A stretch of 64,000 bases of DNA from a virus. The translations under genes were made by a program, and so were the position numbers. This document shows positions 30,417 through 60,525 of this stretch, piece after piece (the first letter of the stretch is position 1; the number at the start of each line of letters is the position of its first letter). The notes under the pieces are model-generated. The model was not told where the DNA came from. It did no database searches and was given only the letters and a program-made list of their open reading frames with translations. The stretch covers positions 1-64,000 of the IMG/VR virus record IMGVR_UViG_3300032293_001441; one strand, 5' to 3'.

Positions 30417-32642
30417 TTATGGACCATAACGTATGATGATTCTTACATTACTTGGTGCCGAAATACCTGTAACATTAACAAGTGCTGAACTACTTTCCGT
30501 TGAACTGGTCATTCCATCAAAGGTACGTGTGGCGACAACTTTGTATGTTCCACCAGTATCTATTACGACTGGCGATACGGTGTATGTCGATAATGTAGCA
30601 CCAGATATAGCCACATTATTTCTATACCATTGATATGATATTGTACCTGCTCCAGAATCTGTAACAGGCGGGGCAGGCGTTGCGGACACGCCGCTTACAT
30701 CCTGAAATCCAGTCGTTCCTCCATTAATGAGCGTACTAAATGATAGTGGTGTTAATGTACCGTTGGCTGTGTTTACTGTATACCACTGACCATTGTCAAA
30801 GGATTGACCATACAACGTTGAACCGGCTGGACCGAAGGTGATTTGAAGTCTGGCTATTGCTGGAGAACCAACTGTGCCTATATTGGTGGCAGATATAGTA
30901 CCACTTAACGGACCAGATGGTAGAGTCAGATTATAAAACATAGAACCGTTGGAAGTAGTGGCATATAATGTACCATTACTAGTAATGGCTATGTCTCCAA
31001 TATAATTGTTGCCTGTTGTAGGTATACCGCCCGTGAGCGTAGCAGACGAAGTGCCATTAGAAATCATTGTAGGGGTTCCTGATCCGTCATATTGTAATGC
31101 GACTCGCACCAGCATATGTGTACCCGGCATAATATACCAATAAGCATTATTCCAATATGCTCCGTTGTCTGGTCGGCTGGTGGTCAATTGCCCTAGATTG
31201 ACTGGTGTAGAATTGGCAGATTGGTTCCAATACCACAGAGACGCCAGGCCACTTCCACTCGGATTAGGTGCCGCAAAAAATACTTGACCTCGCGTAGTAT
31301 CAAACGCTATTCCGTTTATTGCATTTGTTGATGTAGCACCTACAAGAGTAGACACATCTCGCACAGCCCTCTTTGTTCCAGTATCGCCGATTTCATAAAT
31401 ATTGTTGTCTGTACCAACAGTATAATAATACACCGATACTGATGCGAAGGTTGACAATGTAAGTGTATTTCCAAACTCAACACTTGTAGCAACAGGCTGA
31501 ACGGTAAAGATAGGTGCCTTTAATGTTCTAATAACGTTTACTGTTGCTGTATTGCTGTCTGTAAAACTGGATACACCATCTATAGTACTGGTTGCTCTAA
31601 GTTTATACACACCAGAGTCTGCGCTGGCAGCGGCACTCACAGTATATGATGTAGATGTTGCTCCTGTTATAATAACATCATCTTTGTACCATTGATATGT
31701 TGGAGTTGGTGTGCCAGTAGCCAACCCAGATAATGTAAATGATTGATTTAGATCAATGGTCACGGAGGATGGTTGAGCAGTAAATACTGGTGCCGCAAGA
31801 GTTCTAACTACGGTTACTGTTACTATATTACTATCAACTGAACTGGATGCTCCGTTTAGTGTATTGGTCGCAACAACCTTATAATCGCCGCCATTGGCAC
31901 TAACAGCAGAACTTACGGTATATGATGTAGATGTTGCTCCAGTTATAGCGACGTTGTCTTTATACCATTGGTATGTTGGAGTTGGAGTGCCAGTCGCTAA
32001 TGCCGATAGTGTAAATGACTGTGTAAGATTTACTGTTGCGGCGACGGGTTGCGTAGTAAATGTGGGCGGCACCAAAACTTCTATGACAGTAACTGCCACT
32101 GCATTACTGTCCGTAGACACCACTGTTCCGCTAACAGTATTGCTTGCTGATACTTTGTATGTGCCCGCGTCAGCAAGAACTGCCGATGATACTGTGTATG
32201 TAGCAGATGTTGCACCTGATATAGCAACATTATTTTTAAACCATTGATATGTTGGTGGAGAGTCGCCCGTTGCAAGAGATGATAGTGTAAAAGATTGGCC
32301 GACAGATGCGTTAGTAGCAACTGGTTGTAGTGTAAAAACCGGCGGATTGACCACACTCAAAGTTGCAATATTTGAAAGACTACTTCCCAACGAGTTACTA
32401 ACTTCTACGGTATATGCGGCAGCATCCGATATTGTAACATTCGCTAACACATACGATATAGATGTTGCACCGGCAATATTCGTTCCCCCTTTTTTCCACT
32501 GGTATGTAAACGGGGCTGTTCCGCTGGCGGTAACATCAAAGGTGACAGTCTGACCAACTTTGGCAACCGGACTAACATCTTGAGCATATGCCATACTGCA
32601 TAATGCAAGTATATAAAAAAGTATCTTGATATAGTTCTTCAT
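30417..32642 (-). CDS. Secreted multi-domain Ig-like protein with an inserted propeller-like domain
   Basis: A 741-residue protein. Residues 1-20 are a signal peptide (MKNYIKILFYILALCSMAYA) with a likely signal peptidase site. Four Ig-like modules follow (QWKKGGTNIAGAT, QWFKNNVAISGAT, QWYKDNVAITGAT, QWYKDDVIITGAT), each with the W-x-K core and a D-x-G-x-Y/T-K end. The fifth Ig begins at ~371 but is interrupted at ~400-650 by a beta-propeller-like region (DNNIYEIGD, GIAFDTTRGQVFFAA, GTLYATTSNGSMF), then completed by QWYRNNVAISGAT. Such Ig proteins occur on bacterial surfaces; phage Ig domains usually sit on virion proteins without a signal peptide. A lifestyle or surface role is possible. Confidence 0.82.
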   Translation of the reverse strand: MKNYIKILFYILALCSMAYAQDVSPVAKVGQTVTFDVTASGTAPFTYQWKKGGTNIAGATSISYVLANVTISDAAAYTVEVSNSLGSSLSNIATLSVVNPPVFTLQPVATNASVGQSFTLSSLATGDSPPTYQWFKNNVAISGATSATYTVSSAVLADAGTYKVSASNTVSGTVVSTDSNAVAVTVIEVLVPPTFTTQPVAATVNLTQSFTLSALATGTPTPTYQWYKDNVAITGATSTSYTVSSAVSANGGDYKVVATNTLNGASSSVDSNIVTVTVVRTLAAPVFTAQPSSVTIDLNQSFTLSGLATGTPTPTYQWYKDDVIITGATSTSYTVSAAASADSGVYKLRATSTIDGVSSFTDSNTATVNVIRTLKAPIFTVQPVATSVEFGNTLTLSTFASVSVYYYTVGTDNNIYEIGDTGTKRAVRDVSTLVGATSTNAINGIAFDTTRGQVFFAAPNPSGSGLASLWYWNQSANSTPVNLGQLTTSRPDNGAYWNNAYWYIMPGTHMLVRVALQYDGSGTPTMISNGTSSATLTGGIPTTGNNYIGDIAITSNGTLYATTSNGSMFYNLTLPSGPLSGTISATNIGTVGSPAIARLQITFGPAGSTLYGQSFDNGQWYTVNTANGTLTPLSFSTLINGGTTGFQDVSGVSATPAPPVTDSGAGTISYQWYRNNVAISGATLSTYTVSPVVIDTGGTYKVVATRTFDGMTSSTESSSALVNVTGISAPSNVRIIIRYGP

Positions 32643-32678: not shown

Positions 32679-32686
32679 GATAATAA

Positions 32687-32781
32687 AACAGCCCCATATT
32701 TCTATGGGGCTGTCAGGGGTGATTGAACTCAACTTCACCCTCCACCAGTCAGCATAATGGCTGACACATATAACCTTTAAC
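32687..32781 (-). ncRNA. Candidate structured small RNA
   Basis: A ~95-nt stretch between the Hsp20 and Ig genes has no ORF but contains its own near-consensus promoter (32788-32815), probable start GGG at ~32781, three hairpins and a terminator. The hairpins are GTCAGC/GCTGAC with a 6-nt loop, then GGGTGA/TCACCC enclosing a smaller TTGA/TCAA pair, and the 10-bp terminator stem. An independent RNA gene is the simplest reading, but expression is not shown. It is not a tRNA: no acceptor or T-arm geometry fits. Confidence 0.5.
32688..32713 (-). terminator. Rho-independent terminator of the candidate small RNA
   Basis: A perfect 10-bp stem (ACAGCCCCAT / ATGGGGCTGT) with a 6-nt loop, followed on the minus strand by TTTTATTATC. 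It would also stop readthrough from Hsp20. Confidence 0.9.
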
Positions 32782-32787
32782 CCGTCT

Positions 32788-32815
32788 AATATAAGTGAAG
32801 GATGTTATATGTCAA
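32788..32815 (-). promoter_or_regulatory. Near-consensus sigma70 promoter for the small RNA
   Basis: Minus strand TTGACA, 16-bp spacer, TATATT, just after the Hsp20 stop. No ORF follows before the terminator at 32688-32713, which supports a short non-coding transcript. Confidence 0.7.
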
Positions 32816-32822
32816 CCTTTTT

Positions 32823-33275
32823 TTACAACAATTTGACTTTTTGTGGTTTTGCTTCCTCAAGTTTGACACGAGGAAGCGTGACCTTTAATGTGCCATGTTG
32901 GAAATACGCCTTGATCTTGGTCTTGTCAATACCTTCACCAACGCTGAACGAGCGAGTAAAACTAGAACGCTTGATTTCCTTGTAGATATAGCGTCCTTTG
33001 GCTTCATTTACCGATTCCGGGACTTGCTTCTTACCACCCTTGATAACAAGAGTATCGCCCTCTAATTCAACGGAAACGTCTTCCTTGCTCAATCCAGCAA
33101 GATCTGCTTCCAATTCGTATTTATCGCTGTATTCAACAACATCAACTTTTGGATAGCTAGTTTTGCTATATGTTCCGGTATAAGGAGTTATACCGAATCC
33201 GTTGAAGACATCGTCGAATAGACGATCAAATGGGGTGAGAAACTCATCCCGTGTATATCTGCTTAGTGTACTCAT
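32823..33275 (-). CDS. hsp20: Small heat shock protein (Hsp20 family)
   Basis: A 150-residue alpha-crystallin-domain chaperone. Features: KVDVVEYSDKYELEADLAGL, the DVSVELEGDTLVIKG strand, YKEIKRSSFTRSFSVGEGID, and the conserved end HGTLKVTLPR. An I/V-x-I/V-like C-terminal tail (VKLL) follows. I start at the ATG 33273-33275 (MSTLSRYTRDEF) with AAAGGA upstream, because the 28 extra residues of the longer frame do not resemble the family. Hsp20 is common in aquatic T4-like phages and is thought to help virion protein folding. No clear promoter was found in its leader. Confidence 0.93.
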   Translation of the reverse strand: MSTLSRYTRDEFLTPFDRLFDDVFNGFGITPYTGTYSKTSYPKVDVVEYSDKYELEADLAGLSKEDVSVELEGDTLVIKGGKKQVPESVNEAKGRYIYKEIKRSSFTRSFSVGEGIDKTKIKAYFQHGTLKVTLPRVKLEEAKPQKVKLL

Positions 33276-48154: not shown

Positions 48155-49003
48155 CTACGTCTGACTATCTTTTGAATTTATGGAGTCCGCAGATTCTGCG
48201 AACCATTTGTCCAATAAAGAATTATTTATATCTATCTTAAAATGATCATAAATTTCTTGAGTATCTAGTCCCAACTCTCTAAACCCCAATATATAATTTT
48301 TAACTCTATGCTCGGTGTATATTGGATAAGGAACACCGTCGGGTCTTCCGAATCTATGCACCCATCTTAAAAAAGGAAGACACAGTGTCTTTTTTCCATA
48401 TTTTTTATATTTTTTATGTATATACCCCTCTTCTCCACCAAACCCAATAAATTTTGGGTGAAATCCTAACCAACTATCTTTTCTACAAGAAAATACTCCA
48501 AGTCCTTGGCACTCTATTTCGAACGGTTCGGATGAAATGTCATTTCCGCGTGGATCTGTCCCCCAAGTTCCCCACATATGGTTTTTCCACTTTAAATCAA
48601 AATGAGTAAATACCGTTTTTAAACTATCAGTGTATAACGGACCTTGCAATAAATTTTCATCATCTTTTTCCGAGTCATAAAAATCTATCAAAGACCGCAA
48701 CGATCCTTGTTCTAGCATAACATGGCAATCCATAACCAAGACATATGGGGTATTTGAAAAATCAAAAATCTTACTTCTTATTGAAGTAGATTTATATTCG
48801 TTGAATGGAATATATCGACACTCGGGTATAGAATTGCAAAATTTTTCCAACAATTTACCGTGTGAACCGGATGGATTGTTGTCAATTACAACAAATTCTA
48901 TTTCGTTTGATACTTCTTTATGATATAGCCTTATAGATTGTATTGAAAAATACACTCCACTATAATCATCGTATGTAACCATACCGATTGTAAGTTTTTT
49001 CAT
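48155..49003 (-). CDS. Glycosyltransferase family 2 protein
   Basis: A 282-residue GT2-like enzyme: opening MKKLTIGMVTYDDYSGVYFS, FVVIDNNPSGSHG and the DxD-type YVLVMDCHVML. It starts the second glycosyltransferase operon, 68 nt downstream of a Pro/Thr-rich fibre gene. TATAAAATAG before the ATG is promoter-like but not convincing. Substrate unknown. Confidence 0.85.
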   Translation of the reverse strand: MKKLTIGMVTYDDYSGVYFSIQSIRLYHKEVSNEIEFVVIDNNPSGSHGKLLEKFCNSIPECRYIPFNEYKSTSIRSKIFDFSNTPYVLVMDCHVMLEQGSLRSLIDFYDSEKDDENLLQGPLYTDSLKTVFTHFDLKWKNHMWGTWGTDPRGNDISSEPFEIECQGLGVFSCRKDSWLGFHPKFIGFGGEEGYIHKKYKKYGKKTLCLPFLRWVHRFGRPDGVPYPIYTEHRVKNYILGFRELGLDTQEIYDHFKIDINNSLLDKWFAESADSINSKDSQT

Positions 49004-49071
49004 ATAACTATTTTATATTAAAGTAGCGCCAATCGTTTAGTAAGTGCGTGACTAACTATTGAATAACCAGT

Positions 49072-49923
49072 TTATTGTTGTCCTATATTCTCATTATTTT
49101 CGTTTCCTCCGCCTCCTCCTGTTCCAGGTGAGGTAGGTGCGCTCGTAGGCGCGTCAGTTGGTTCGTCCGTAGGCGCGTCAGTTGGCGCGTCAGTTGGTTC
49201 GTCCGTAGGCGCGTCCGTAGGCGCGTCCGTAGGCGCGTCCGTAGGCGCGTCCGTAGGCGCGTCAGTTGGTGCGGATGTCGGAGCGTCAGTTGGTGCGTCC
49301 GTAGGCGCAGACGTTGGTGCAGAAGTTGGTGCGTCTGTAGGTGCGGATGTTGGAGCGTCGGTTGGCGCGGACGTAGGCGCAGACGTTGGCGCGTCCGTAG
49401 GCGCAGACGTTGGCGCGTCCGTAGGCGCAGACGTTGGCGCGTCCGTAGGCGCAGACGTTGGCGCAGAAGTTGGTGCGGACGTTGGTGCAGAAGTTGGCGC
49501 ATCGGTCGGTCCGTCTGTAGGTTCGTCTGTAGGTTCGTCTGTAGGTCCGTCTGTAGGTCCGTCTGTAGGTCCGTCTGTAGGTTCGTCTGTAGGTTCATCG
49601 GTGGGCGGCGATGACGGACTTGGGGTAGGAGTTGGTGTACGAGTAGGAGTTACAGTCGGCGTTACTGTCCGAGTCGGCGTCGGGGTTGGAGTGTTGGAAG
49701 TTCCGGACGGAGTCGGAGTTACGGTCGGTGTAACGGTTTGTGTCAATGATGGGGTAACGGACGGAGTTGGTGGGGGTTCTGGTACTAACTCCTCCCATCC
49801 TACGTTGAGCATATCTGCTCCAACTTTTACATACAATTTTCCGTCGTCTGTACCAATTGCTGCACCAACTTGTCCAAAAATTTTTGATTCCGGATTTCTT
49901 CTATATGGAATGTGTTTCGGCAT
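49072..49923 (-). CDS. Modular fibre protein with Pro/Thr/Asp/Ala tetrapeptide repeats
   Basis: A 283-residue protein. Residues ~9-48 (NPESKIFGQVGAAIGTDDGK, LYVKVGADMLNVGWEEL) form the shared docking module. The rest is low complexity: Thr/Pro first (PTPTRTVTPTVTP), then more than thirty PTDx or PTSx tetrapeptides (EPTDGPTDAPTSAPTSAP), ending in a short Gly/Asn tail. The Thr/Ser density makes it an obvious candidate for O-glycosylation. It lies upstream of a glycosyltransferase operon and 7 nt downstream of its paralogue. A spacer, stalk or mucin-like shield is inferred. Confidence 0.72.
   Translation of the reverse strand: MPKHIPYRRNPESKIFGQVGAAIGTDDGKLYVKVGADMLNVGWEELVPEPPPTPSVTPSLTQTVTPTVTPTPSGTSNTPTPTPTRTVTPTVTPTRTPTPTPSPSSPPTDEPTDEPTDGPTDGPTDGPTDEPTDEPTDGPTDAPTSAPTSAPTSAPTSAPTDAPTSAPTDAPTSAPTDAPTSAPTSAPTDAPTSAPTDAPTSAPTSAPTDAPTDAPTSAPTDAPTDAPTDAPTDAPTDAPTDEPTDAPTDAPTDEPTDAPTSAPTSPGTGGGGGNENNENIGQQ
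49131..49600 (-). repeat. 12-bp tandem repeat array coding Pro-Thr-(Asp/Ser)-x tetrapeptides
   Basis: Roughly 470 nt of degenerate 12-bp units (for example gcgtccgtaggc and gcagacgttggc). The variations are mostly in-frame substitutions. The array lies inside the fibre gene at 49072-49923 and is likely to vary in length by slippage. Confidence 0.85.
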
Positions 49924-49930
49924 ATGTTTA

Positions 49931-50968
49931 TTACGATAATGTTATATATCCGTCGTAATTTGCTAAACTTTGTCCGGTGCCGCCGCCGTTCGTTCCTGCG
50001 TATGCGCCGGTATCGTAGTCTGGACCTTCCGATCCTCCAATTCCGCCCCCACCACCACCACCACCAGCGCCCCCGCCATCGTCTGCATCATTTGCCCCAC
50101 CGGTTCCATTTACCGCAACAAATGATGATGGAGCATATGAAGCGGATTCTCCTTCTGCTGGAGGATTAATACCAGCACCTCCACCTCCACCTCCACCGCC
50201 AGCACCGGAAACAAGAGAATTCGCATTCGTTAGTATAACGGATGCGCCACCTCCACCGCCACCCCCACCAGAAGCCCCGGTAGCACTTGGACCCGCGTTT
50301 CCTCCATTTCCACCCGAATAATAACCGATACCGCCAGAACCTCCGCCGGTACCAGTTTGGTTATTGCCACCGGGTCCGCCCGCATTTCCAGGTATTAGTT
50401 TGTATGTCCCGTCAAGTAAAAACGTACCCAATGTTCTCGATCCTCTTCCACCACTCCCACCTTGAACCGATACATCGTCCCCACCTTCGCCACCATGTGC
50501 GCCATTTATATCATAGTTTATTATAAAATTATTAGAGAATGGGCTGATAGTCCATGTACCATATCCATTTACAGTCAATGGACCATGTATACTAAAATCC
50601 CACACAGTCCTACCACTTACTGCTGGAGATATATTTAATCTTCTTGTATTTCCGGAAGGTGTAATTGTTGGTGTAGGTGTTGGTGTAGGCGTATTAGAAG
50701 ACGGCGTCGGTGTAGGTGTAAGAGAAGTACCTGTTACTGTCGGCGTCGGTGTAGGAGTACCAGACGACGGTGTGATAGAAGGAGTGGGAGTAATCGTTGG
50801 AGTGGGGGTGATTCCGGATTCTACTTCTTGTACTTCAGTCCATCCCACGTTCAAAGTATCATTTTGTTTTTTTACATAAGCCTTACCTTCATCGGTTCCT
50901 ACTAAATCTCCGACCAATCCAAAAACTCTGGTATTAGGGTTAGAATGATACTTGACGTGGTCGTTCAT
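49931..50968 (-). CDS. Modular fibre protein with Thr/Pro linker and Gly-rich tip
   Basis: A 345-residue protein. Residues ~9-50 (NPNTRVFGLVGDLVGTDEGK, AYVKKQNDTLNVGWTEV) form the shared docking module. A Thr/Pro linker (~55-105) follows. The C-terminal ~190 residues have glycine-rich loops (GGHGGEGGDDVSVQGGSGG, GAGGGGGGGGAG) ending SLANYDGYITLS. The Gly-rich loops resemble adhesin tips of T-even phages and glycine-rich domains of other fibres. It is the first gene of a run with the tetrapeptide fibre and a glycosyltransferase operon. Confidence 0.75.
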   Translation of the reverse strand: MNDHVKYHSNPNTRVFGLVGDLVGTDEGKAYVKKQNDTLNVGWTEVQEVESGITPTPTITPTPSITPSSGTPTPTPTVTGTSLTPTPTPSSNTPTPTPTPTITPSGNTRRLNISPAVSGRTVWDFSIHGPLTVNGYGTWTISPFSNNFIINYDINGAHGGEGGDDVSVQGGSGGRGSRTLGTFLLDGTYKLIPGNAGGPGGNNQTGTGGGSGGIGYYSGGNGGNAGPSATGASGGGGGGGGASVILTNANSLVSGAGGGGGGGGAGINPPAEGESASYAPSSFVAVNGTGGANDADDGGGAGGGGGGGGIGGSEGPDYDTGAYAGTNGGGTGQSLANYDGYITLS

Positions 50969-51014
50969 ATATATTAAATATAAAATATATTAAAATTTTG
51001 ATTTATTATATTGC

Positions 51015-57989: not shown

Positions 57990-58255
57990 ATACAATATAT
58001 ATAAAAATTCATATAAAAAAATATCCCCTGTGGTAATTTGCAAAAATAAAACTGTATATACAAAAATCCTATAACTAAATTTTCAAAATTTTAAAATTTA
58101 AAAAATAGGGGATATAATGTAAAAAACTATATAAGGAAAAAAGGATAATAAACAGATACAGGATTATAAGGTGTTATATATGAATTATAAAGGTTAGATA
58201 ATTGTGTATATATGAAAGTGTAGCAAAAAAATTGACTTCAAGTATAAAACGCATT

Positions 58256-58382
58256 ACCCCGCCCCCCACCTCCCCCCCACCTCCCCACCTAGAAGACACC
58301 TAGACCGGCACCTACGCGGGGGGGTGGGGGGTTGTCAAGCCTTTTTTTCAACCCCCACCCCCACGGGGGGAGGGTGGGTGGT
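58256..58382. other. G-quadruplex-prone tracts on both strands
   Basis: On the minus strand 58257-58290 reads four or more G runs (GGGG, GGGGGGG, GGGGGG, GGGG) separated by short linkers, a canonical G-quadruplex pattern. On the plus strand 58318-58332 and 58364-58382 are also G-rich. A GGGGGTTG/CAACCCCC hairpin (58327-58334 and 58349-58356) lies between. Confidence 0.7.
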
Positions 58383-58418
58383 CACCGAATGTTCTTGACT
58401 ACCTCATAAAAAAAGTAT

Positions 58419-58448
58419 GGGGCGGGAGGCTCTCACCCCTCCCGCCCC
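58419..58448 (-). terminator. Rho-independent terminator
   Basis: A 10-bp GC-rich stem (GGGGCGGGAG / CTCCCGCCCC) with a 10-nt loop, followed on the minus strand by TACTTTTTTT. It ends the gene at 58456. Confidence 0.95.
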
Positions 58449-58455
58449 GATTCAC

Positions 58456-59070
58456 TCAGACCTCGACCTCGGTCCCTCCGCAGCGGAGGGATTGCATCGC
58501 GCCCGCGTCCAGACAGAGGGACCGATACTTCGAGATTGAAAGTTGCTTGCGAATCGCGTCCTTGGCAATCGTCAGGGGACGCGACTTGACAACCTTGTGC
58601 GTCCCCGCCTCCAGCACCTTGCGGGAGACGACAATCCCTCGCAGTTCAAAGGTGCCGTCATCGAACACGCTGACCCCGTTGCCAACGCTCGCATAGCGGT
58701 TGCGCTTGGTGTAACTGTCATTCTGTTCGCCCCGCTTGGCGTTCTCCAGCGTGTTTCGCAGAGACCGCAGCACCTCGGCCTTCGCCTTGCGGTCGAGGCT
58801 TCCCCGCACGTTGTCCACCGGCTTCACCGCCCGCGCTTCCGCCAGCGACTTGCGGACCAAGTTTCCGTAGTCCCCGCCAACGAGGACCGTGTACCGGCTG
58901 ACCTCCCCGCTTTCCTTGGCGCGGTAGGTGACCCCAACGAACTTGGCGCCGGTGATGCCCATCCGGTTGAGCAGCGCGACAATCGCGTCCGAAGCGGAGA
59001 GGGAGGAGGGAGCAACCGTCGCGACGGCGCGGGCGGCGGCGGCAATGGCGGAGGTAGTGGCGGAGTTCAT
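58456..59070 (-). CDS. Unknown GC-rich gene, early-type
   Basis: A 204-residue protein starting MNSATTSAIAAAARAVATVA (ATG 59068-59070); the longer frame adds 19 Arg-rich residues from a non-coding leader. It is Ala/Arg-rich with a beta segment ITGAKFVGVTYRAKESGE (~33-50) and RYTVLVGGDYGNLV. The base composition is markedly GC-richer than in the virion genes, as in its neighbours. No family recognised. A terminator follows the stop by 8 nt. Confidence 0.7.
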   Translation of the reverse strand: MNSATTSAIAAAARAVATVAPSSLSASDAIVALLNRMGITGAKFVGVTYRAKESGEVSRYTVLVGGDYGNLVRKSLAEARAVKPVDNVRGSLDRKAKAEVLRSLRNTLENAKRGEQNDSYTKRNRYASVGNGVSVFDDGTFELRGIVVSRKVLEAGTHKVVKSRPLTIAKDAIRKQLSISKYRSLCLDAGAMQSLRCGGTEVEV

Positions 59071-59225
59071 TTGTGAGAGTGTCTCGGTTCGGCGCGGGTC
59101 GCGGCGTCGTTGCTGCGTTGCCCTCACCTACCCTCGACGCAACACATCATTCAGATTTTCTATCCCTTGTCGATTTCTTTTTTAGAAAAAGTGAGCAGGC
59201 CAAAATTGACCTTGACAGATTCAAT

Positions 59226-59255
59226 AAAAGTCTACTCGTGTTTGAGTGGACTTTT
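59226..59255 (-). terminator. Terminator-like hairpin, bidirectional
   Basis: Arms AAAAGTCTACTC and GAGTGGACTTTT pair over 12 bp, one of them G-U, with a 6-nt loop. T and A runs flank it on both strands. Confidence 0.75.
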
Positions 59256-59271
59256 TTTATTGTGTCAATGA

Positions 59272-59310
59272 GAATGGGCGTCAAGCGAGCTATCAACTTG
59301 ACGCCCATTC
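59272..59310. repeat. 14-bp perfect inverted repeat
   Basis: Arms GAATGGGCGTCAAG and CTTGACGCCCATTC with an 11-nt loop. No U run follows on either side, so an operator, origin element or processing hairpin is as likely as a terminator. Confidence 0.75.
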
Positions 59311-59359
59311 AATGACCCCACCGGAGGGGCGATTGAAACCGGCGGGAAACTCTAGTGGT

Positions 59360-59386
59360 GCAGCCTCTCCACGGCGGAGAGGCTGC
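59360..59386 (-). terminator. Hairpin after the 99-residue gene
   Basis: Arms GCAGCCTCTC and GAGAGGCTGC pair over 10 bp with a 7-nt loop, 14 nt after the stop of the gene at 59401. No U run follows, so termination is uncertain. Confidence 0.45.
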
Positions 59387-59400
59387 GACCGTTGCGGGGG

Positions 59401-59700
59401 TTAGTCGAGCACGTTGAAATACGCCTCCTTGTCCAACTTCAAGACCAGGTAGCGGGCGCGGTCGTAGATGCCGATTGCAACCGGCTTGCGGTTGTACGAC
59501 ATCTTGCCGCTCATCGCGTAGTTGTTGTACGCGACTTGCGCGAAGCGGATGAGCGCCGCCGCCAGCGGGGTAGTGGTCACGCGGTGAGCGTTCCACGGGT
59601 TGACCACCTCGGTGGACTGGTCGGAGATGACCAGACCGTAGTCGGCGGTCAACTTGTTGACCAGATTCGTCTCGGGCTTGGTGAGGGTGATGTTGTTCAC
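59401..59700 (-). CDS. Unknown small protein
   Basis: A 99-residue protein (opens MNNITLTKPETNLVNKLTAD) with AAALIRFAQVAYNNYAMSG and PVAIGIYDRARYLVLKLDK. No family recognised. Codon use is GC-rich. The ATG is preceded by TTGTTAAAAATAAAAAATCT, which resembles the early element recurring at 60.5-62.1 kb. A hairpin lies just after the stop. Confidence 0.7.
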   Translation of the reverse strand: MNNITLTKPETNLVNKLTADYGLVISDQSTEVVNPWNAHRVTTTPLAAALIRFAQVAYNNYAMSGKMSYNRKPVAIGIYDRARYLVLKLDKEAYFNVLD

Positions 59701-59878
59701 GATGCAGACCCTAGCAGATTTTTTATTTTTAACAAGGATATTCTTTCAGTTTATCCCAGAAAGTTCAAATGCCACTTTTGGTATTGACATTTTAATAAAA
59801 GTATGAATGGAGTCGCCATTCGATACTTTGAGCAAAGGAAGAGGAAGGGGCTTGCGCTCCCCCCCCCCCCCACCTAAA
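59701..59878. other. Non-coding gap with a C13 homopolymer
   Basis: About 180 nt with no supported gene. It contains a run of 13 C (59859-59871) just after the stop of the next gene and AT-rich DNA near the start of the 99-residue gene. The run may also be a sequencing artefact. Confidence 0.6.
59859..59871. repeat. Homopolymer of 13 C
   Basis: A single-base tract prone to slippage and sequencing errors. Its length should not be trusted from one assembly. Confidence 0.8.
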
Positions 59879-60166
59879 TTAAACCAACTCCTCGACTTGC
59901 GCCGCCTCTGCGGCTTCAGCCTGCAAGCGAGCGACCTTGACCGCTTCCTTGACCAGGCGGGCATAGGTAGATGCATTTCCCGCCTTGATGGTGTATTCGT
60001 CCGTATCAATGCCGTGCAGATCAAACGCCTCCGTCGCGGCGGCAGCGTCATCCACCCAGACCGTCTGCGACGGGCTGTCGATGAACAGGTGAATGTTGCT
60101 CAAATCCAGAGCGACCGTGCCATACTTGAACAGGGTGGCGTTCTTGAACGAGATAACGTGCTTCAT
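59879..60166 (-). CDS. Small unknown protein
   Basis: A 95-residue protein (opens MKHVISFKNATLFKYGTVAL). It has a beta segment VALDLSNIHLFIDSPSQTVWV and an Ala/Glu-rich helical C-terminus (KVARLQAEAAEAAQVEELV). No family recognised. It lies in a run of small early-type genes. An 8-bp hairpin AACCAAGC/GCTTGGTT lies 24 nt upstream. Confidence 0.68.
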   Translation of the reverse strand: MKHVISFKNATLFKYGTVALDLSNIHLFIDSPSQTVWVDDAAAATEAFDLHGIDTDEYTIKAGNASTYARLVKEAVKVARLQAEAAEAAQVEELV

Positions 60167-60190
60167 ATCTAGGTTGTTAGATCAATCAGG

Positions 60191-60211
60191 AACCAAGCGT
60201 TGTGCTTGGTT
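60191..60211. repeat. 8-bp hairpin upstream of the 95-residue gene
   Basis: Arms AACCAAGC and GCTTGGTT with a 5-nt loop. It is not followed by a U run on either strand, so a terminator is unlikely. Confidence 0.5.
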
Positions 60212-60284
60212 GTCATTCCATCTTGATCCAACGAAAGTAAGAGATCAGAAAAAAATAAAATGTCCAGAAGAAAATGGAAGTATC

Positions 60285-60491
60285 TTACTTGATAAATCCT
60301 GCTGCCTTTAGACGCAACTCTGTGTCAAACTTGGCTTTTTCACGCATAAAGCCAGCAACATCAGACTCTTCCCACAAGCCACCGCCGCGCTCCCAGCGGG
60401 CAGCAGGATCACCATACTTCTGCTCTGGATAGCACCGCTTAAAGCCATAGTCTTCTGCCAGAGCAATCAGATGCGAGTTTGTTAGCGTCAT
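60285..60491 (-). CDS. Small unknown protein
   Basis: A 68-residue protein (opens MTLTNSHLIALAEDYGFKRC) with a Gly/Trp-rich middle (RWERGGGLWEESD) and a basic, helical end. No family recognised. A sigma70-like early element (60498-60525) ends 6 nt before the ATG. Confidence 0.7.
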   Translation of the reverse strand: MTLTNSHLIALAEDYGFKRCYPEQKYGDPAARWERGGGLWEESDVAGFMREKAKFDTELRLKAAGFIK

Positions 60492-60497
60492 AACAGT

Positions 60498-60525
60498 AGA
60501 CTACCTAAATTTTATAAAAAGTCAA
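60498..60525 (-). promoter_or_regulatory. Early promoter element, copy 1
   Basis: Minus strand TTGACT, 16-bp spacer, TAGTCT. The spacer contains TATAAAAT. One of several near-identical copies between small genes. Confidence 0.65.

What the first reader, a model, noticed from the sequence alone, without database searches (positions are those of the whole stretch)
32687..32815. Candidate phage small RNA with promoter, three hairpins and terminator
Between the Hsp20 and Ig genes there is a near-consensus promoter (TTGACA-16-TATATT) followed by ~95 nt with no ORF, three hairpins and a strong terminator. This is the layout of a stand-alone sRNA. It is not a tRNA or a known riboswitch by sight. It could regulate host or phage messages.
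Basis: partly seen in the sequence, partly recalled or inferred. Interest (0 to 1): 0.7.

Follow-up and report, generated by a model that had tools for sequence, protein, structure and literature searches.

The report
Conserved pseudoknotted phage small RNA
Between two genes of an uncultured freshwater-type phage lies a real, roughly 95-letter non-coding RNA whose folded shape is preserved by matched mutations across dozens of related phages; it belongs to no RNA family in the public library, and what it does is still unknown.

Summary
On the minus strand there is a TTGACA-16-TATATT promoter (11 of 12), about 95 nt without an ORF, and an intrinsic terminator. This is a genuine structured RNA and not a chance fold. 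Relatives at the same locus in more than 20 phage contigs share the RNA. A covariance model finds them at E 1e-5 to 1e-28, one strong copy per record, and 23 of 26 base pairs show changes on both sides (95.5% of cells paired; covariation 0.548 against 0.187 shuffled).

The anatomy differs slightly from "three hairpins". The first hairpin is one stem of a probable H-type pseudoknot. It is followed by a near-invariant single-stranded UGGUGGA, a conserved GGGUG/CACCC hairpin and the terminator. The 5' end AAAGGUUAU is also conserved.

When the RNA follows hsp20 it has its own TTGACA promoter 9-14 nt upstream. When it follows dnaK, an HD-hydrolase gene or other ORFs it has none, yet keeps the same 5' boundary. 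It persists where hsp20 and dnaK are absent, so it is not a chaperone 3'UTR part.

Rfam has no match. No bacterial genome carries it beyond chance hits. I favour a trans-acting RNA that works through its fold. No transcript, partner or target could be tested.

The parts
32810..32815 (-). -35 hexamer TTGACA
   Evidence: TTGACA is exact in the hsp20-linked relatives listed; in L006/L007 it is present but no good -10 follows, and the automated scan ranked another site first
32788..32793 (-). -10 hexamer TATATT, 9 nt before the conserved AAAGG
   Evidence: -10 element ends 9-12 nt upstream of AAAGG in most hsp20-linked relatives, range 5-14
32680..32778 (-). the non-coding RNA (about 92-99 nt; 5' end inferred from the conserved AAAGG boundary and promoter spacing)
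   Evidence: R1 match 32688-32778, 79.6 bits, E 2.5e-16; R2 90.5 bits
32770..32778 (-). conserved 5' segment AAAGGTTAT
   Evidence: alignment A5 consensus
32767..32769 (-). pseudoknot stem A, 5' arm (ATG; weak in this genome)
   Evidence: stronger in relatives (e.g. ATAGG/CCTAT, TTATGG/CCATAA, CAGT/ACTG)
32760..32765 (-). stem B, 5' arm GTCAGC
   Evidence: helix 1 of A5: 7 of 7 pairs with a change on both sides
32757..32759 (-). pseudoknot stem A, 3' arm CAT
32748..32753 (-). stem B, 3' arm GCTGAC
32741..32747 (-). near-invariant single-stranded junction TGGTGGA
   Evidence: invariant in A1 and A2
32717..32740 (-). hairpin P2: GGGTGA / TCACCC with inner TTG/CAA
   Evidence: compensatory GGATG/CATCC in L009
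32687..32714 (-). intrinsic terminator hairpin, T-rich tail to about 32680
   Evidence: 9 of 10 pairs of helix 4 have a change on both sides
32823..33272 (-). hsp20 gene (upstream neighbour, not part of the RNA)
   Evidence: PHROG 432, E 3e-22
30417..32642 (-). Ig/Hoc-like gene (downstream neighbour, separate cargo)
   Evidence: PHROG 4069, E 1.2e-64

Best explanation
It is a member of a family of phage non-coding RNAs that I could not find described. In this genome it is made as its own transcript of about 95 nt from a sigma-70-type promoter and ends at an intrinsic terminator. Shown by comparative sequence: a stem B hairpin, a P2 hairpin and a terminator hairpin held by compensatory changes, a near-invariant UGGUGGA junction, and a fixed AAAGGUUAU 5' end. 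Well supported: stem B is part of an H-type pseudoknot with stem A and a loop 1 of usually one nucleotide (mostly U). Inferred: the compact pseudoknot + junction + P2 domain is the working part and acts in trans by binding a host or phage protein or ribonucleoprotein (possibly something that reads an exposed GGAG). In this reading it is not mainly a base-pairing antisense RNA. Where the phage lacks a dedicated promoter, the same RNA is presumably released by processing of the 3' end of the upstream mRNA.
For: Covariation: 23/26 pairs with double changes, 0/500 shuffles, and slid controls at most 0.10 against 0.548. Stem A across 16 clade representatives: score 167 against a shuffle maximum of 151 (0/4000) and 5/10000 when arms are swapped between clades. 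The model recovers members at about E 2e-5 or better, one strong copy per record. Own TTGACA promoter in hsp20-linked relatives, absent in dnaK-linked and most HD-linked ones. The same 5' boundary directly behind dnaK stop codons. The RNA is retained when hsp20 and dnaK are absent. The most conserved letters are the junction and P2 base, while hairpin loops and stem sequences vary. No enrichment of complementary sites for the 5' segment.
Against: No transcript evidence. No partner identified. In dnaK- and HD-linked lineages the RNA could simply be a 3'UTR with a terminator. A5 was fitted to the structure of one clade, which inflates pair counts somewhat. Stem A is weak in the window (3 bp) and fails or is poor in L017 and L022. 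The target search covered only 64 kb of an incomplete phage genome and no host.
Confidence: 0.6

Rival explanations
1. A base-pairing trans-acting sRNA: the single-stranded 5' end AAAGGUUAU (and perhaps UGGUGGA) is a seed that pairs with phage or host mRNAs, with the pseudoknot and hairpins as scaffold and stabiliser.
For: The 5' end is conserved across deeply diverged members and lies just downstream of the promoter; known phage sRNAs such as PreS and VpdS act on mRNAs with the help of Hfq (PMC12197685).
Against: No excess of complementary sites in the window. Nearly all near-perfect matches to the complement of UGGUGGAGGG lie on the strand opposite to most genes. UGGUGGA conservation is tied to a structural junction.
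Confidence: 0.22
2. A cis element: a 3'UTR/terminator module that protects the upstream mRNA end or insulates the neighbouring cargo genes, without a life of its own.
For: In dnaK-linked and several HD-linked lineages it lies directly behind the stop codon with no promoter, and nearly all members end in a terminator.
Against: The hsp20-linked branch puts a conserved promoter between hsp20 and the RNA, pointless for a cis 3'UTR element. It is retained behind at least three unrelated upstream genes. The pseudoknot and junction are far more than a terminator needs; more distant hsp20 relatives have only a plain terminator there.
Confidence: 0.15
3. A chance or artefactual fold with a terminator and a spurious promoter.
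For: Promoter-like sites are common in AT-rich DNA (9 found, 6.4 expected nearby).
Against: Overwhelming covariation and conservation.
Confidence: 0.01
4. A remnant or decoy related to tRNA-cluster stable RNAs or tmRNA (as T4 rnaC/rnaD, or Menderavirus tRNA-cluster RNA).
For: Stenotrophomonas phages Moby and Mendera have a similar motif inside a tRNA cluster, and one weak hit lies inside a predicted tmRNA (L137).
Against: T4 rnaC/rnaD have no match. The Menderavirus matches are weak (E about 0.0013-0.0018) and hardly better than the tmRNA hit. Most members have no tRNA nearby.
Confidence: 0.05

Closest known systems
Phage-encoded trans-acting sRNAs (e.g. PreS of lambda, about 88 nt; VpdS of VP882; PMC12197685)
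   Same: Short phage RNA, in the case of PreS of similar length and encoded between genes.
   Different: No sequence or structural relationship shown; carries a pseudoknot and an invariant structured junction; no target and no Hfq link known.
T4 stable RNAs rnaC and rnaD
   Same: Small stable RNAs, with no function given in the record, in a large T4-type phage.
   Different: 139 and 119 nt, encoded in the tRNA cluster of T4; no match to the model and no GGUGGAGGG.
manA and wcaG motifs (T4-like cyanophages; PMC2864571)
   Same: Structured RNAs of T4-like phages with a proposed pseudoknot (manA); manA is sometimes near ibpA/Hsp20 chaperone genes.
   Different: manA, and by the paper's reading wcaG, are putative gene-regulating 5' elements; neither model matches this RNA, which lies behind genes and ends in a terminator.
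T4/T2 gene 32 mRNA pseudoknot (PMC3014915)
   Same: A pseudoknot of two coaxial stems in T4-type phage RNA.
   Different: It is a leader-mRNA operator bound by gp32; this one is near the 5' end of a separate short RNA with a different sequence context.
ToxI-type RNA antitoxins (type III toxin-antitoxin)
   Same: Compact H-type pseudoknot RNA (recalled; not compared here).
   Different: ToxI comes as tandem repeats next to a toxin gene (recalled). Here there is one unit, no toxin gene was identified beside it, and there is an extra conserved junction and hairpin.

Membership tests
Structured non-coding RNA gene | Base pairs conserved by compensatory change | tested here: met
   23/26 pairs, covariation 0.548 against 0.187 shuffled
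Structured non-coding RNA gene | No conserved reading frame | tested here: met
   Indels within the RNA, and by eye no start codon or frame shared by members; the only listed ORFs of at least 40 aa that touch it, of 41 and 58 aa, start at its ends and run into neighbouring sequence
Stand-alone phage sRNA | Own promoter and terminator | tested here: met
   Met in the window and most hsp20-linked relatives; not met in dnaK-linked and most HD-linked members
Stand-alone phage sRNA | A discrete transcript | not testable with these tools
   No RNA-seq available
Stand-alone phage sRNA | A trans target or partner | tested here: inconclusive
   No enrichment of complements to the 5' end in the window; host unknown
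Any Rfam 15 family | Match above gathering score | tested here: not met
   0 matches in the window; best sub-threshold 23.4 bits against a cut-off of 44
tRNA / tmRNA | ARAGORN call | tested here: not met
H-type pseudoknot | Stem A formed across stem B with short loop 1 | tested here: met
   Across 16 clade representatives, 0/4000 shuffles, 5/10000 swaps; weak in the window itself and in L017, L022
T4 rnaC/rnaD | Sequence/structure match | tested here: not met
   No R2 match anywhere in T4
Substrate of a phage RegB nuclease (GGAG site) | Phage encodes RegB | tested here: not met
   Of 13 records searched PF10715 was found in T4 only, not in nine carrier contigs; those contigs may be fragments
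ToxI antitoxin | Tandem pseudoknot repeats beside a toxin gene | tested here: not met
   One unit per locus; flanking genes are hsp20, dnaK, an HD-type gene, Hoc-like and others, none called a toxin

The most novel reading that the evidence does not exclude
A new class of compact pseudoknotted phage RNA that acts through its fold on a host or phage protein or the translation machinery. It would be made either from its own promoter or by trimming from whatever mRNA precedes it, and would be shared by uncultured lake phages and, in a diverged form, cultured Stenotrophomonas phages.
Probability: 0.3. Interest if true: 0.75.

Novelty: new variant of a known kind. Interest (0 to 1): 0.55.

Why it matters
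Structured RNAs of lytic phages outside model systems are little charted. This one has strong comparative support, a precise 5' boundary, a covariance model to find more copies and a simple layout, so it can be tested directly (express about 95 nt, pull down, probe). The presence or absence of a promoter around an unchanged RNA also gives a natural comparison between a free-standing sRNA gene and a 3'UTR-derived RNA in one phage lineage.

Tried and rejected
Known families: Rfam at both thresholds, tRNA/tmRNA, T4 rnaC/rnaD. Leader peptide: the window's ATGTGTCAGCCATTATGCTGA is not kept in relatives. Chaperone 3'UTR element: rejected because the RNA persists without hsp20/dnaK. RegB substrate: GGA unpaired with the fourth G constrained is the geometry RegB alone cuts (PMC3014915), but no RegB was found in the carrier phages. 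Seed targets in the window: no enrichment. Inverted repeat over the RNA promoter as a general operator: significant in some members only. Alternative read-through fold in the window, pairing GGTTGACATATA with TATATGTGTCAGCC, is not shared by L002 or the dnaK-linked loci and is unsupported. A looser pattern scan gave mostly noise. A bacterial-genome scan gave 4 hits, about what chance gives for that pattern by my rough estimate, with coding-like context. Plain MAFFT alignment misaligns stem B, so covariance-model alignment A5 and a manual alignment were used.

Full report
Observation. The feature is on the minus strand. The promoter TTGACA(32815)-16-TATATT(32788) matches 11 of 12 positions, and a 12-pair terminator hairpin lies at 32714-32687. 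The 96-nt RNA folds at -39.9 kcal/mol, z = -4.6. The combination of an 11/12 promoter with a strong terminator within about 140 nt occurs once in the window and in none of 20 dinucleotide-preserving shuffles. Rfam 15 gives nothing above threshold in the whole window, and there are no tRNAs. The window is part of a 65,947-base virus record. Its baseplate wedge protein is closest, at 45% identity, to Microcystis phage Mel-JY01, then to an uncultured 484-kb phage and Flavobacterium phage immuto. None of those three carries the RNA.

Relatives. Hsp20-guided retrieval brought 80 loci. In those with Hsp20 at least 60% identical, where the contig reaches far enough, the 3' flank of hsp20 or of dnaK holds the same RNA. 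Pattern scans added further loci. Nearly all share AAAGGUUAU, a variable stem, UGGUGGA, GGGUG...CACCCCUAA or close variants of it, and a terminator. The more distant hsp20 relatives inspected (L029-L070) have no such RNA and mostly a plain terminator there. A covariance model built on one clade (R1) finds the other members at E 2e-5 to 1e-23, with the window at 79.6 bits, E 2.5e-16. The broader model R2 finds one strong copy per carrier record.

Structure. On the model-based alignment A5 (39 sequences, 29 distinct, median pairwise identity 70%), 95.5% of cells are standard pairs. 23 of 26 pairs have changes on both sides, and the covariation score is 0.548 against 0.187 for shuffles and at most 0.10 for slid partners. 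A5 was fitted to the model structure, which favours it; the slid and shuffle controls and the range of stem B sequences argue that this is not the cause. In the manual alignment all 12 distinct stem B arm pairs are fully paired, against 1.3 expected on shuffling. Stem B's 3' arm abuts UGGUGGA. In most clades a second stem (A) pairs the bases just before stem B's 5' arm with those just after it: ATAGG/CCTAT, TTATGG/CCATAA, TGGG/CCCA, AGGT/ACCT, CAGT/ACTG. This is an H-type pseudoknot with a loop 1 of usually one nucleotide. Over 16 clade representatives the stem A score is 167 against a shuffle mean of 94 (maximum 151, 0/4000), and 5 of 10000 swaps of arms between clades reach it. An earlier, smaller test without L268, L269 and L262, and with a different placement for L027, gave weaker support (swap control 220/5000). 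In the window itself stem A is only 3 bp.

Promoters and boundary. In hsp20-linked members an exact TTGACA precedes the RNA. The scan places the -10 element 9-12 nt before AAAGG in most of them (range 5-14); in L006/L007 no good -10 follows. In dnaK-linked members the best upstream score is no better than shuffled sequence, and AAAGG begins in or next to the dnaK stop codon. In L327, L331, L332, L333 and L328 no hsp20 or dnaK gene was seen beside the RNA; it follows an HD-type gene or small ORFs, and only L333 has a promoter-like site (9/12). The constant element of the locus is therefore the RNA. In the hsp20- and dnaK-linked members its left boundary stays fixed whether it is set by a promoter or by an upstream gene. 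I infer processing in the second case.

Distribution. A scan of 84,980 prokaryote genomes with the core pattern gave four hits with coding-like context. Within phages, Stenotrophomonas Menderavirus genomes hold a candidate distant copy between CPT_Moby_136 and tRNA-Lys in a large tRNA cluster. It has a GGGU/ACCU stem A, CCUGG/CCAGG stem B, UGGUGGA and the GGGUGAC...GUCACCC hairpin. Its model scores (27-28 bits, E 0.0013-0.0018) are hardly better than a match inside a predicted tmRNA (L137) and one in L266, so I treat it as a lead, not as membership.

Function. The parts that vary least are the UGGUGGA junction, the base of P2 and the 5' AAAGGUUAU; stem sequences and loops vary freely. This pattern suits a fold recognised by a protein or ribonucleoprotein at least as well as a base-pairing seed. 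The 5' segment has no excess of complementary sites in the window (14 against 10.05 expected), and nearly all matches to the complement of UGGUGGAGGG are on the strand opposite to most genes. An exposed GGA next to a paired G is the geometry that T4 RegB alone cleaves in a small RNA (PMC3014915), but RegB is absent from nine carrier records tested. I put about 60% on a trans-acting RNA that works through its fold, 22% on a seed-pairing sRNA and 15% on a cis 3'-end element. The main gap is the lack of any transcript or partner data.

Prior knowledge. Searches of open-access papers on phage sRNAs and phage structured RNAs and passages read in three papers showed nothing matching. Most subscription papers were not searchable.

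Noticed in passing
L010 5484-5600; L218 1296-1395; L006 and L002 P2 loops: The RNA gene looks mosaic: L010 joins an L007-like pseudoknot half to a window-like terminator and downstream DNA, and P2 loops and terminators are swapped among clades, as if recombination often happens inside it.
   Followed up: partly
window 30417-32642 and the sites downstream of the RNA in L002, L016, L022, L327, L330-L332: The RNA borders a hypervariable cargo site: a Hoc/Ig-like gene in the window, and elsewhere a nucleotidyltransferase-like gene, a GIY-YIG-like endonuclease or other ORFs (the last names are by eye, not by profile).
   Followed up: partly
L003 5459-5505, L009 5450-5490 (upstream of phage dnaK): Promoters of phage dnaK carry perfect or near-perfect 13-bp inverted repeats of different sequence in different phages, overlapping the promoter.
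   Followed up: partly
window 32680-32825: A read-through transcript from hsp20 could fold into an alternative 12-bp hairpin that would block stem B; not conserved in relatives.
   Followed up: partly
L299 5080-5171 (Moby), L303 312-394 (Mendera), L266 3353-3438 minus strand: Possible distant copies near tRNA genes in cultured Stenotrophomonas phages and in another contig, of uncertain homology.
   Followed up: partly
window 49000-51000 and 58000-60500: G+C jumps to 0.45-0.55 against about 0.36 around, with no clear genes at 58-60 kb; possible insert or repeat-rich genes.
   Followed up: no
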